Positions 36,580-64,000 of a DNA stretch of 64,000 nucleotides are shown in pieces. The notes beneath the pieces were generated by a model. It had not been told where the DNA came from, ran no database searches, and saw nothing but the letters and a program-made list of their open reading frames with translations. The DNA comes from Achromobacter insuavis (lineage in GTDB: Bacteria; Pseudomonadota; Gammaproteobacteria; Burkholderiales; Burkholderiaceae_B). The stretch spans positions 39,878 to 103,877 of the forward strand of contig NZ_CADIJR010000014.1 of NCBI RefSeq assembly GCF_902859645.1, given 5' to 3'. Within the stretch, counting starts at the first letter, position 1, and each line of letters opens with the position of its first letter. A program made the position numbers and the translations under genes.

Positions 36580-36593
36580 CTCTATATATAGAG
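36580..36593. other. Perfect AT palindrome after the Bug gene
   Basis: CTCTATATATAGAG is a 14-nt perfect palindrome 5 nt past the Bug stop codon. It could form a weak cruciform; no terminator-like T-run follows. Confidence 0.6.
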
Positions 36594-36634
36594 ACAATCC
36601 CAAAAGCGCCCATTAAGTCTCATCGTGAGCGAGT

Positions 36635-36783
36635 GACGGGGCAGGCGGGGGATGGCGGGGCGTGTAGATTGCGCCCGAGGGAATCCGAAGGGAGCCGAAG
36701 GCGGACGAGGATGACAACGGGGCAGTCCGGAGCGAAGGCTCCGGACCGCAATCGTAGCCCCGCCATCCCCCGCCTGCCCCGTC
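36635..36783 (-). repeat. Compound palindromic repeat element, copy A
   Basis: Perfect 27-bp inverted arms (36635-36661 and 36757-36783) enclose 95 nt. Inside is a 9-bp stem, GTCCGGAGC (36725-36733) with GCTCCGGAC (36738-36746), around a GAAG loop. The core matches, on the minus strand, those of copy B (63016-63181) and copy C (from 63768). It sits between convergent genes (Bug and Lrp) and could end both transcripts. Confidence 0.88.
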
Positions 36784-36834
36784 GCTCGCGGCTAAAGAAC
36801 CCAATCCGCCGCAAGAACAGATAAAGAAGCCGCC

Positions 36835-37284
36835 CTACAAAGGCAACTTCAATTCATGCTTGATCTCCCGCAACGCCACAATCGTCCGCGTCTGCCGAAT
36901 CCCAGGCATATTGAACAAGAACCGATGCAGGAACCGGTCATAAGCCTCCGGACTCTCCACCAGGATCTTCAGCAGAAAATCCGAATCCCCGGTCACCGCA
37001 TAGCATTCGAGAATCTCCGGCGCATCCCGCACCGACCGCTCGAAGTTCTCCACCGTATTCGCCGAATGCCGCTCCAGGCTGATCTGCGCGAACATACAGC
37101 CCAGCCCCACCTTGCTGCGATCCACCTGCGCGCTGTAGCCCTGGATCACGCCGCTGGCCTCCAGCGCCTTCACCCGCCGCCACACCGGCGCCGCCGATAG
37201 CCCTACCTTGTCCGAAAGCTGCTGCGCCGAGGCCCGGCCATCCTCCTGCAGGGCCTTGAGGATGCCGATATCGGTCTTGTCCAT
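36835..37284 (-). CDS. Lrp/AsnC-family transcriptional regulator
   Basis: A 149-residue regulator. The N-terminal helix-turn-helix (MDKTDIGILKALQEDGRASAQQLSDKVGLSAAPVWRRVKALEASGVI) is followed by a RAM ligand-binding domain with the CYAVTGDSDFLLKILVES block. It is divergent from the indolepyruvate ferredoxin oxidoreductase gene, and the 135-bp intergenic region is locally AT-rich, as Lrp sites are. It likely senses an aromatic or other amino acid and controls that enzyme, by analogy with the frequent Lrp-IOR pairing. Confidence 0.93.
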   Translation of the reverse strand: MDKTDIGILKALQEDGRASAQQLSDKVGLSAAPVWRRVKALEASGVIQGYSAQVDRSKVGLGCMFAQISLERHSANTVENFERSVRDAPEILECYAVTGDSDFLLKILVESPEAYDRFLHRFLFNMPGIRQTRTIVALREIKHELKLPL

Positions 37285-61046: not shown

Positions 61047-62954
61047 ATGTATGTGTTTTACGAAGACGACGGCAGCTTCAAGGCCGGCCATATCCTGTCC
61101 GAAACCGACGCCAGCCTGCAGGTGGAGTCGGAATCGGGCAAGCGCAGCAAGATCAAGCGCGCCAACACCCTGTTCAATTTCGCCGCGCCCGAACCGGCCG
61201 CGCTGATGGCCCAGGCGACCGCGCTGGCCGACACCCTGGACCTGCAGTTCCTGTGGGAATGCGCCCCCCAGGAGGAATTCGATTCTCCCGTGCTGGCGGC
61301 CGACTATTTCGGCCACGCCCCCACCCCGGTCGAGCAGGCCGCGCTGCTGATGCGGCTGCACGGCGCGCCCGCCTATTTCCACCGTCGCGGCAAGGGCAGC
61401 TACCGCCCCGCCCCGCCCGACATCCTGGCCGCCGCCCTGGCCGCGCTGGAAAAGAAACAGCGCCAGGCCGAGCAGCAGCAGGAATGGGTGGACGAAATGG
61501 CCGCCGGCCGCCTGCCCGAGCCCATCGCCCAGGCCGCCGAATCGCTGCTGATCCGGCCCGACAAGAATTCGCAGCAATGGAAGGCGCTGGACGCCGCCTG
61601 CGCCAAGCTCGGCAAGAGCCCCGACCGCCTGCTGCTGGAATTGGGCGCCTGGCCGCACGCGCTGGCGCTGCACAAGCGCCGCTTCCTGGCGGTGAACTTC
61701 CCGCGCGGCCTGGCCTTCCCCGAACTGGAACTGCCGCCGGTCGACCGCGACCTGCCGCTGTCGGACGCCGAAATCTATTCGGTCGATGACGTCACCACCA
61801 CCGAGATCGACGATGCCCTGTCGGTCTCCACCCTGCCCGACGGCAACCTGCGCGTGGGCATCCACGTGGCCGCGCCCGGCCTGACCGTGACGCGCGACAG
61901 CGAATTCGACAAGCTGGCGCGCGCGCGCCTGTCGACCGTCTACATGCCGGGCGACAAGATCCCGATGCAGCCCGACAACGTCATCAAGGCGTTCTCGCTG
62001 GACGCGGGCCGCGAGGTGCCGGTGCTGTCGCTGTACGTGACGGCCAACCCGGAAACCGGCGAGGTCATCGAATCCGACACGCGCCTGGAGCGCGTGGTGG
62101 TGCGCGAGAACCTGCGCCACAACATGCTCGACGCCCAAGTCACGGAAGAGAGCCTGAACGACACGTCCACCGACATGCCCTACGGCCACTGGCTGCGCCC
62201 GCTGTGGAAGCTGGCGCAGGCGCTGTCGGCGCAGCGCGAGAACGTGCGCGGCAAGCCCGAGAACAACTCGCGGGTGGAGTACAGCTTCTACCTGGACGGC
62301 GACCCCGACGATCCCGACACCCCGGTGCGCCTGGTGCCGCGCCAGCGCAACGCGCCGCTGGACCGGATGGTGGCCGAGTACATGATCCTGGCCAACAACC
62401 TGTGGGGCGGCCTGCTGAACCAGCACGGCGTGCCCGGCATCTACCGCTCGCAACAGGCCGGCCGCGTGCGCATGAGCACGCAGGCGCTGCCGCACGAGGC
62501 CATCGGCGTGCCGCAATACGCCTGGAGCACGTCGCCGCTGCGCCGCTACGTGGACCTGGTGAACCAGTGGCAGCTGATCGCCGCGGTGGAACACGGCGTC
62601 TCGGCGCGCCTGGTGGCCCCCTTCAAGCCGCGCGACGCGGACCTGTTCGCGATCATCGGCGCGTTCGACGCGCAGTACGCGGCCTGGGCCGAGTTCCAGA
62701 GCGCGATGGAGCGCTACTGGTGCCTGCGCTGGCTGAAGCAGCACCACATCACCCGCACGGTGGCCCACGTGCTGCGCGAAGACCTGGTGCGCTTCGCCAA
62801 CTGCCCGCTCGTCACCCGCATCGGGGGAATGCCCGAGCTGGAGCGCGGGACGGCGGTGGAGGTGGAGATCCTGGGGATGGATGAGTTGTCGCTGGAGCTG
62901 GACTGCCGGTATGTGGGGCAGGTGGGGCCGGCGGCTGAAGAGGCTGCTGCCTAG
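61047..62954 (+). CDS. RNB-domain ribonuclease (RNase II family)
   Basis: A 635-residue exoribonuclease. The N-terminal region (about 1-90) resembles a cold-shock or S1-like RNA-binding fold. The RNB catalytic core contains SVDDVTTTEIDDALSV (metal-binding Asp residues) near 245-260 and YAWSTSPLRRYVDLVNQWQLIAAV. It is most like the betaproteobacterial RNase II/R-related proteins encoded next to mpl. It degrades mRNA 3' to 5'. It is the last gene before the repeat-rich right end. Confidence 0.9.
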   Translation: MYVFYEDDGSFKAGHILSETDASLQVESESGKRSKIKRANTLFNFAAPEPAALMAQATALADTLDLQFLWECAPQEEFDSPVLAADYFGHAPTPVEQAALLMRLHGAPAYFHRRGKGSYRPAPPDILAAALAALEKKQRQAEQQQEWVDEMAAGRLPEPIAQAAESLLIRPDKNSQQWKALDAACAKLGKSPDRLLLELGAWPHALALHKRRFLAVNFPRGLAFPELELPPVDRDLPLSDAEIYSVDDVTTTEIDDALSVSTLPDGNLRVGIHVAAPGLTVTRDSEFDKLARARLSTVYMPGDKIPMQPDNVIKAFSLDAGREVPVLSLYVTANPETGEVIESDTRLERVVVRENLRHNMLDAQVTEESLNDTSTDMPYGHWLRPLWKLAQALSAQRENVRGKPENNSRVEYSFYLDGDPDDPDTPVRLVPRQRNAPLDRMVAEYMILANNLWGGLLNQHGVPGIYRSQQAGRVRMSTQALPHEAIGVPQYAWSTSPLRRYVDLVNQWQLIAAVEHGVSARLVAPFKPRDADLFAIIGAFDAQYAAWAEFQSAMERYWCLRWLKQHHITRTVAHVLREDLVRFANCPLVTRIGGMPELERGTAVEVEILGMDELSLELDCRYVGQVGPAAEEAAA

Positions 62955-63015
62955 GGCGGCATTTGGCTTGTCGTTGGGTTGTTTCTGCTGGCGGCGGGGG
63001 GGGCTTTCTTAGGCC

Positions 63016-63181
63016 GCCCGTCTGGCAGGCGGTCCTGGCGGCGGGCGCCCACGATTGCGGTCCGGAGCGTTCGCTCCGGACTGCCCCATCCTCATCCTCG
63101 TTGCCGCCTGTCGGCGGCTGCCTTCGGATTCCGTCGGGCGCATCGAGGTTGCCCGCCGCCAGGACCGCCTGCCAGACGGGC
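63016..63181 (+). repeat. Compound palindromic repeat element, copy B
   Basis: Perfect 31-bp inverted arms (63016-63046 and 63151-63181) enclose 104 nt. Inside, GTCCGGAGC (63060-63068) and GCTCCGGAC (63073-63081) form a stem with a GTTC loop. A second internal stem, GCCGCC-TGTC-GGCGGC, follows at 63103-63118. The core matches copy A on the minus strand; the arms differ in sequence. Confidence 0.9.
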
Positions 63182-63351
63182 TACGTTTTTCTTGGCCTGT
63201 CGCGCTACTGGAGCGGGGAAACTTCACGAGATTGCTGGTGCCCGTTGCGGGTGGCCGCGCGGGCGGCCGCCCGCAACTTACGCGGTGTCTTGGCTTGGTT
63301 TGATGACGCTGTGCGCGGGTGACGGGTGGCTTGCTGGGGGGCCGTCCGGTC

Positions 63352-63560: not shown

Positions 63561-63767
63561 CAATGCCCACAGACTCTTCCGCATCTCGCCCGGCCTCCCC
63601 CCAAATGCCAAAGAAGGCCGCCCGCGCGGCCGGTTTTGGCGGCCCCGCCAAATCTTCCGTCCCGACGCGATCTTCCACCAAAACGCCAAGCACACGATTC
63701 GCCCCCGCGCCGGTGAAGTGATCACGGTGCAGCCCGTGGCGTCGGCGGCCGGTGGGGCGCGGGGCTG

Positions 63768-63830
63768 CGATTGCGGTCCGGAGCGTTCGCTCCGGACTGC
63801 CCCGTCGTCATCCTTGTATGGTGTAGATGC
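63768..63830 (+). repeat. Compound palindromic repeat element, copy C (partial)
   Basis: The core GCGATTGCGGTCCGGAGC and its pairing strand GCTCCGGAC (63789-63797) are identical to copy B. The downstream half diverges after CATCCTTG, and no matching right arm is seen before the window ends. Confidence 0.85.
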
Positions 63831-64000
63831 GCCTTCCGCAGTGGGAGGGTGCTGGGGTAGGGACGTCGTCATCCATCAGCCGGTAGCAGCCGGACTGCCA
63901 CAACGAGAGCATCCCACCCCGCCTCACAGCGTCGATAAGGAATCTAGCGGCCTAGGACCGCCGATTGATCGCAAGGTAACGCCCGAGGCGAGGCTACCCC

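What the first reader, a model, noticed from the sequence alone, without database searches (positions are those of the whole stretch)
63016..63181. Three dispersed copies of a structured intergenic element sharing one core
A block beginning CGATTGCGGTCCGGAGC, with its pairing strand GCTCCGGACTGCCCC, occurs at 36.7 kb (minus strand), 63.1 kb and 63.8 kb. It differs at only one position over about 36 nt and is always outside genes. In copies A and B similarity continues through CATCCTCG, CCTTCGGATTCC and TCGGGCGCA, so each full element has several conserved sub-blocks. It encodes no protein. This looks like a REP/BIME-like or non-coding family of this lineage that I do not recognise.
Basis: seen in the sequence. 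Interest (0 to 1): 0.75.

Follow-up and report, generated by a model that had tools for sequence, protein, structure and literature searches.

The report
Shape-conserved repeat between convergent Achromobacter genes
The three sequences are copies of a folded, non-coding repeat that recurs in nearly every Achromobacter genome searched, often just after the end of a gene; its shape and stem length are kept while the letters of the stem differ from site to site, and we did not find it described in the RNA library or papers that we could search.

Summary
This genome holds 49 matches: 40 complete copies, 7 cut by one IS110-type insertion sequence (the 63.8 kb copy is one) and 2 diverged. The family is in 42 of 43 genomes of the genus and, diverged, in 8 genomes of two related genera.

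Each copy is a stem of about 33 bp closing a three-way junction. The stem is private to its site: near-perfectly self-complementary, fixed in length (31-34 bp in 123 of 146), free in sequence. The core covaries strongly (17 of 28 pairs changed on both sides, in fitted and unfitted alignments). Stem mismatches and folding point to the strand antisense to the upstream gene as the folded one. Many copies start just after a stop codon and face a convergent gene. At orthologous sites the inner hairpin is often swapped while the outer stem stays.

It resembles REP/BIME elements in niche and as an IS110 target, but fails REP criteria on size, tag and transposase. Best reading: a new structured intergenic repeat, probably acting as folded RNA at gene ends. 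Function is inferred, not shown.

The parts
63004..63015 (+). copy B, 5' edge (TTCTTAGG type), about 50 nt after the stop of the upstream gene 61047-62954
   Evidence: sharp 5' edge in the all-against-all comparison
63016..63046 (+). copy B, outer stem P1, 5' arm (private sequence, 31 bp, no mismatch)
63053..63144 (-). copy B, core three-way junction (GAT.GCG/CGC.ATC base, P2 63060-63081, CCC/GGG 63085-63087 with 63136-63138, P3 63091-63133); the minus strand is the one inferred to fold
   Evidence: model R1 hit C14:102928-103021; structure; strand
63151..63181 (+). copy B, outer stem P1, 3' arm
63244..63277 (+). copy B, optional second hairpin P4 around GGCCGC...GCGGCC
36757..36789 (-). copy A, outer stem P1, 5' arm on the minus strand; follows the end (36835) of the Lrp-type gene 36835-37284
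   Evidence: the name Lrp is my reading of the protein, not a search
36667..36755 (-). copy A, core three-way junction (element orientation minus; the strand inferred to fold is then the window's plus strand)
   Evidence: model R1 hit C14:76544-76632; fold
36629..36661 (-). copy A, outer stem P1, 3' arm; shared sequence ends about here, no P4 domain
63732..63765 (+). copy C, 5' arm of P1; the partner arm lies beyond the contig end
   Evidence: by comparison with full copies
63767..63813 (+). copy C, 5' half of the core up to the insertion point GTCATCC
63814..64000 (+). left end of an IS110-type element inserted in P3 of copy C (cut by the contig end); 11 letters of the left target recur in it

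Best explanation
A genus-level family of mobile or once-mobile structured intergenic repeats. SHOWN: one fold (a 31-34 bp outer stem closing a three-way junction of hairpins P2 and P3), heavy covariation, frequent position just after a stop codon and facing a convergent gene, presence or absence at orthologous sites, core orientation kept relative to the outer edge. SUPPORTED: the strand antisense to the upstream gene is the one whose fold is selected. INFERRED: it acts as a folded RNA at gene 3' ends (a boundary or protection element for transcripts of convergent neighbours). In this model the invariant core is read by a protein, the fixed-length stem serves as a spacer, arm-to-arm copying during replication (template switching) together with selection keeps the stem complementary whatever its letters, and exchange between copies shuffles P3.
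For: Copies: 49 in this genome; 42 of 43 genus genomes and 8 genomes of two other genera. Fold: 17 of 28 pairs changed on both sides, 98.6% of 3,023 cells paired against 83.5% when shuffled; in an alignment not fitted to the structure, 96.3% of 3,008 cells, again 17 pairs, 326 double-changed cells against at most 66 when slid by 1-2. Stem: own 5' arm matches own 3' arm at mean score 31.1, other copies' 3' arms at 10.4 (40 copies); 4,633 of 4,835 pairs Watson-Crick in 146 copies; 123 of 146 are 31-34 bp. Orthologous stems, 36 pairs with a conserved stem: 43 positions changed on both sides and still Watson-Crick, 24 on one side, 2 on both sides but unpaired, 1,107 unchanged, gaps in the arm alignment of 8 pairs; indels in both arms together seen. 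Strand: distinct mismatch contexts, named on the plus strand, C.A 70 against G.T 12 and C.T 39 against G.A 6; neighbouring sequence shows no such strand bias; consensus P3 pairs in the best fold of 130 of 135 minus-strand cores and 86 of 135 plus-strand cores, pair probability higher on minus in 135 of 135. Context. Presence/absence: core in 9 of 30 genomes read at site A. P3 exchange.
Against: No transcript was seen, and I recognised no minus-strand promoter (by eye) or terminator (four T within 10 nt after P1 on the minus strand in 0 of 146). At site A the older palindrome, probably a terminator, lies between the convergent gene and the element. G.T is also tolerated in single-stranded DNA, so the strand evidence does not prove RNA. 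P4 has a T run more often on the plus side (35 of 139) than on the minus side (9 of 139), which suits plus-strand transcription. Upstream neighbours were opposite-strand in 47 of 200 copies with my crude gene caller. One-sided stem changes are not rare (24 against 43), so stepwise change plus selection could replace template switching. In the own genome alone RNAalifold's covariation term is small (-1.1 of -27.6 kcal/mol; 3 of 24 pairs double-changed), and one of five measures (further pair types, 33 against 31.9) did not exceed the shuffles. Two of 182 cores are inverted in place.
Confidence: 0.47

Rival explanations
1. A DNA-level element: the hairpin or cruciform on single-stranded DNA is what matters, either as a miniature mobile element moved in trans by an unidentified enzyme, or as a binding site for a nucleoid protein or gyrase where convergent genes build up supercoils.
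For: Very few wobble pairs in the own outer stems (5 on the plus strand, 13 on the minus strand, of 1,330); gain and loss at orthologous sites; inversion between the arms in 2 of 182 copies; stable fold as DNA too (z -10.8); convergent neighbours.
Against: The mismatch asymmetry needs a strand-specific cause. No REP transposase domain in this genome or in 33 of 43 genus genomes. No target-site duplication could be shown, because flanks of the empty sites are too diverged. No match to copy B in the plasmid and phage collections.
Confidence: 0.28
2. A 3' untranslated element of the upstream gene: the plus strand is transcribed with the gene that ends shortly before it and protects that messenger, like a REP hairpin, with P4 as the terminator.
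For: Of 133 same-strand upstream neighbours, 95 stop within 100 nt of the edge; T run after P4 on the plus side in 35 of 139.
Against: Stem mismatches and folding favour the other strand. The P4 tip was found in 139 of 185 copies and not in copy A. P1 is not an intrinsic terminator: T4 within 10 nt in 2 of 146.
Confidence: 0.18
3. A dispersed small-RNA gene family transcribed from its own promoter antisense to the upstream gene's end.
For: Minus-strand fold favoured; orientation kept in at least 167 of 182.
Against: No conserved promoter recognised upstream on the minus strand (by eye only); copy numbers of 3 to at least 70 and site turnover are unusual for such genes.
Confidence: 0.08
4. A by-product of the IS110-type element that sits in some copies.
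For: 7 of the 49 own matches carry it.
Against: The IS end was found in 11 of 43 genus genomes, the repeat in 42 of 43; the repeat is the IS's target, matched by segments of the IS end.
Confidence: 0.02

Closest known systems
REP / BIME elements with GTAG or CGTC tag (PMC3733652; abstract and passages read)
   Same: Intergenic, downstream of genes, between convergent or co-directional genes, often in inverted pairs, folded, plausibly transcribed.
   Different: REPs are 20-40 bp palindromes; this is about 190 nt with a three-way junction and a private outer stem; GTAG edge in 62 of 146; no REP transposase domain found in the host.
BRE of Bordetella and other Betaproteobacteria (PMC3110155; abstract and section 14 read)
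   Same: Repeat of related bacteria, mostly intergenic, GC-rich, with features of mobile elements.
   Different: About 90 bp, in tandem at some loci, some inside genes, also in Comamonadaceae and Rhodocyclaceae. The repeat here had no match in 24 genomes of other families of the order. Sequences could not be compared.
Bor-1 and Bor-2 stem-loop families of Bordetella (PMC2267715; passages read)
   Same: Intergenic stem-loop families of a related genus; Bor-2 has a similar length (167 nt model, 17 sequences in B. bronchiseptica).
   Different: No sequence in the passages read, so identity is neither shown nor excluded; described there as stem-loop based.
ERIC, NEMIS, YPAL (named in passages of PMC2267715 and PMC3110155; structure details recalled)
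   Same: Structured intergenic repeats, some of 100-200 nt.
   Different: As recalled, members share one stem sequence; here each site has its own.
IS110-family elements that target REPs, such as IS621 and ISPpu9 (PMC1525189 and PMC11208160; passages read)
   Same: The IS in copy C is of this family and targets a multi-copy intergenic repeat.
   Different: It is a user of the repeat, not the repeat.

Membership tests
REP / BIME | 20-40 bp palindromic unit | tested here: not met
   Element about 190 nt; outer stem alone 31-34 bp in 123 of 146
REP / BIME | unpaired GTAG or CGTC tag at one end | tested here: not met
   GTAG at the edge in 62 of 146 copies, 14 of 40 own; CGTC not counted, and pairing of the tag not scored
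REP / BIME | REP-associated tyrosine transposase (PF01797) in the genome | tested here: not met
   0 in own genome; in 10 of 43 genus genomes
REP / BIME | intergenic, downstream of genes, convergent regions | tested here: met
   of 200 copies, upstream neighbour same-strand 133, opposite 47; downstream convergent 123, co-directional 21; of 129 with both neighbours called, 76 lie between convergent genes
Known Rfam family | match at the family's gathering score | tested here: not met
   none in the window; best sub-threshold match over copy B 16.7 bits against a cut-off of 50
Intrinsic terminator | stem followed at once by a T run | tested here: not met
   P1: 2 of 146 plus, 0 of 146 minus
Structured RNA family | covarying base pairs above controls | tested here: met
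Structured RNA family | transcribed | not testable with these tools
   no transcriptome at hand
Miniature inverted-repeat transposon | shared terminal inverted repeats and target-site duplication | tested here: inconclusive
   inverted repeats are private to the site; empty sites at A too diverged to judge a duplication
BRE, Bor-1, Bor-2 | sequence similarity to the published repeat | not testable with these tools
   no sequences in the text parts read

The most novel reading that the evidence does not exclude
A new kind of structured genomic repeat with a division of labour: a constant core read as a folded minus-strand RNA by a dedicated protein, and a stem under selection for length and self-complementarity but not for sequence, kept near-perfect by template switching, with an exchangeable inner hairpin (P3) whose alleles are in turn tracked by the guide segments of an IS110-type element.
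Probability: 0.27. Interest if true: 0.8.

Novelty: new variant of a known kind. Interest (0 to 1): 0.6.

Why it matters
Many sites carry their own 33-bp stem, and orthologous stems show changes on both sides. That makes a natural record of how long, nearly perfect stems arise and are kept, the question put for RNA hairpins in PMC8794818 (passages read). It also gives the genus an unannotated structured element, present in 42 of 43 genomes searched, often at gene ends, and a target set with which the re-aiming of IS110-type elements can be followed in nature.

Tried and rejected
Known RNA family: none at cut-off, weak chance-like matches only. REP moved by its usual transposase: domain not found here or in most of the genus. 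Core inserted in the loop of a widespread GTAG hairpin: the exact core-less pattern was found once, in G003, the one genus genome without a core, and in none of the 10 other genomes given, so it looks like a remnant. Composite mobile unit with a gene between inverted pairs: of five pairs fetched I listed ORFs for one (C99) and took none between the copies for a gene (the longest is 210 aa on the minus strand; not searched against families). That convergent genes each followed by a copy explain the pairs is inferred. Strand bias of mutation as the cause of the mismatch asymmetry: not seen in 48 ortholog pairs of neighbouring sequence, unpolarised counts. P4 as a uniform paired stem: only 43 of 139 had 8-9 of 9 Watson-Crick pairs in an ungapped count, so P4 is not used as evidence for the fold. 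Plasmid or phage copies: no match to copy B at E 1e-5. Papers: nine searches of the held library (two returned nothing, and of the longer results only the top 10-15 were listed); I saw no description of this repeat in those listings.

Recounted on aligned arms of the 36 stem-conserved pairs the figure is 43 to 24; on the looser set (84 pairs) 339 to 116.

Caveats on counts: the gene caller is home-made and missed the Lrp-type gene beside copy A. Genus-wide copies (200, 150, 146 after dropping short or unpaired arms) come from the loci fetched, many found by an exact core pattern, so the invariance of the first 30 nt is partly by selection; in this genome a model search found 2 diverged of 49. 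Some unnamed and named genomes may be the same assembly; copies with identical arms were counted once. Of the 37 pairs with a conserved stem one (two places in L155) is a duplication inside one record; it is left out. In one search at most 70 candidates per genome were scored, at most 16. One search read 30 of 43 genomes at each site, and at site B one of them (L298) ends at a contig end. One search was given 97 of the 300 loci held. One search left out cores whose P3 quartet is not Watson-Crick.

Full report
OBSERVATION. The core is exact at three places in the window, and the shared blocks are as described. Genome-wide the core pattern has 46 exact places against 1 and 0 for the reversed control. 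A covariance model built from the 40 complete copies finds 49 matches here: the 40, 7 interrupted by an insertion sequence, and 2 diverged.

ANATOMY. Comparing the copies gives a sharp 5' edge about 52 nt before the core and a variable 3' extent. From outside in: an edge (TTCTTTAG or TTCGTAG types), a long outer stem P1, a short stem GAT.GCG/CGC.ATC, hairpin P2, and hairpin P3 with a CCC/GGG base, together a three-way junction. The tip of a second, optional hairpin P4 was found downstream in 139 of 185 copies; copy A lacks it.

THE OUTER STEM. In 40 own copies the 5' arm matches its own 3' arm at mean score 31.1 and other copies' 3' arms at mean 10.4 (some own copies share a stem by recent duplication). 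Of 1,330 own pairs 1,296 are Watson-Crick; genus-wide 4,633 of 4,835 in 146 copies. The length is 31-34 bp in 123 of 146, and stem start to core is 38-40 nt in 116 of 146. Of 26 copies read from the two other genera 21 align over 41-43 nt (inner pairs included) and 5 over 50 or more. So the stem is fixed in length and pairing, free in letters.

EVOLUTION AT ONE SITE. In 36 ortholog pairs with a conserved stem, 43 stem positions changed on both sides and stayed Watson-Crick, 24 changed on one side, 2 on both sides without pairing, and 1,107 did not change; 8 pairs have a gap in the arm alignment. Indels occur in both arms together (L013 with L080; L108 with L089). Template switching between arms (PMC8794818) would give this; stepwise change under selection could too, and the one-sided changes show that intermediates exist. 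The inner hairpin P3 behaves differently. In 37 ortholog pairs with a conserved stem (flank mean 94.5%, arms 0.95 and 0.94) P3 identity is 0.86, with 5 identical and 18 below 0.85; random own copies give 0.78. Exchange between copies is the simplest reading (inferred).

FOLD. In 127 model matches (114 distinct) including the two other genera, 98.6% of cells pair, against 83.5% when shuffled; 17 of 28 pairs change on both sides; the covariation score is 0.319 against at most 0.053 for slid structures; a fifth measure, further pair types, does not exceed the shuffles (33 against 31.9). That alignment was fitted to the structure, and sliding does not remove this bias. In an alignment of the same 114 made without structure, 96.3% of cells pair, 17 pairs and 326 cells change on both sides, against at most 43%, 7 pairs and 66 cells when slid by 1 or 2; two tip pairs of P3 are mostly gapped there. 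In the own genome alone the signal is modest: 3 of 24 predicted pairs double-changed, covariation term -1.1 kcal/mol.

WHICH STRAND. Three lines agree on the strand antisense to the upstream gene (here 'minus'). (1) Stem mismatches, counted once per distinct context: C.A 70 to G.T 12 (p 4e-11) and C.T 39 to G.A 6 (p 5e-7); read on the minus strand these are G.U and G.A. Neighbouring sequence shows no strand difference in transitions (0.089 per C, 0.081 per G) in 48 ortholog pairs. (2) The consensus P3 pairs are in the best fold of 130 of 135 minus-strand cores and 86 of 135 plus-strand cores, with higher pair probability on minus in all 135. Whole-element folding of copy B hardly separates the strands: -139.5 kcal/mol, z -11.8, minus; -137.7, z -11.7, plus. 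(3) The conserved internal loops of P3 are purine-rich on the minus strand, which suits tandem G.A pairs (recalled motif knowledge, not tested). RNA and single-stranded DNA remain open (DNA fold z -10.8).

PLACE. In 200 copies the upstream neighbour is on the same strand in 133 and opposite in 47, the rest not called or overlapping; of the 133, 95 stop within 100 nt of the edge. The downstream neighbour is convergent in 123 and co-directional in 21. Of 129 copies with both neighbours called, 76 lie between convergent genes (crude gene calls). Tail-to-tail pairs of copies may simply be convergent genes each followed by a copy. Core orientation relative to the edge is forward in 167 of 182, inverted in 2, both edges matched in 1, undecided by the pattern in 12. 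Downstream of the Lrp-type gene beside copy A, 30 of 43 genomes were read: the core is in 9 (one inverted, L245); it was not found within 700 nt in the other 21, where a short AT-rich palindrome follows the gene that this genome also keeps. Downstream of the gene beside copy B, 18 of 30 have it by pattern, one more in mutated form (L296) and one truncated (L274). So the element is gained and lost; how it moves is unknown.

DISTRIBUTION. 42 of 43 genomes of the genus, 7 genomes of one other genus and 1 of another; 50 of 268 in the family overall; none of 24 genomes of other families of the order. That the window is Achromobacter is inferred from these and from 95-97% identical flanks in A. dolens. 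G117 has a contig of 5,287,950 bases, which I recall as the size of Bordetella petrii DSM 12804; that is memory, not a call.

THE INSERTION SEQUENCE. Copy C is cut after GTCATCC by an element whose full relative (L235) encodes a 318-aa protein with IS110-family domains. In 9 of 10 distinct insertions 6-11 letters of the left target recur in the non-coding left end (L220 is the exception), and in 7 of 7 with a right junction 5-7 letters of the right target have their reverse complement there. This is the arrangement of left and right target guides described for bridge RNAs (PMC11208160, passages). IS variants match both P3 alleles, TCATCC and TCAACC. One insertion (L218) is not in the repeat.

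COMPARISON. In niche and IS110 targeting it works like a REP (PMC3733652, PMC1525189), but it fails REP membership on size, tag and transposase. It could not be compared by sequence with Bor-1, Bor-2 (PMC2267715) or BRE (PMC3110155); if Bor-2 proves to be a Bordetella relative, the family is older news in that genus, but the private stem, strand and exchange findings would stand. I saw no description in the listings of nine library searches.

VERDICT. A real, structured repeat family without an Rfam match; unusual in its sequence-free, fixed-length stem. Structure and family: very likely. Minus-strand folding: likely. Function as a gene-end RNA element: a best guess at slightly under even odds.

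Noticed in passing
63814-64000 and L216, L217, L219, L235-L239: IS110-type element whose non-coding left end carries segments matching both sides of its insertion site; variants match the two P3 alleles of the repeat. A natural example of a re-aimed guide.
   Followed up: partly
L245 (G065, site A) and L156: The core is inverted between its own outer-stem arms, as expected from recombination or template switching between inverted repeats.
   Followed up: partly
window about 36583-36598 and L249-L269: A short AT-rich palindrome (CTCTATATATAGAG type) after the Lrp-type gene, seen in the 21 genomes without the element at this site and kept in this genome; looks like an old bidirectional terminator.
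   Followed up: no
own copies L001 (466-), L010, L027, L033; relatives L241, L243, L275: An extra segment of about 14 nt (CCTAGG or CCTCGG, then GCGGCCCC) between P2 and P3; the spelling may differ between species, which could mark exchange within a genome.
   Followed up: no
L284 / L300 (G003): The one genus genome of 43 without a core has a short core-less hairpin with the same edge at site B, probably a remnant after core loss.
   Followed up: partly
L185-L214 (two other genera): Diverged relatives keep much of the P3 motif while P2 and P1 change by compensation.
   Followed up: partly
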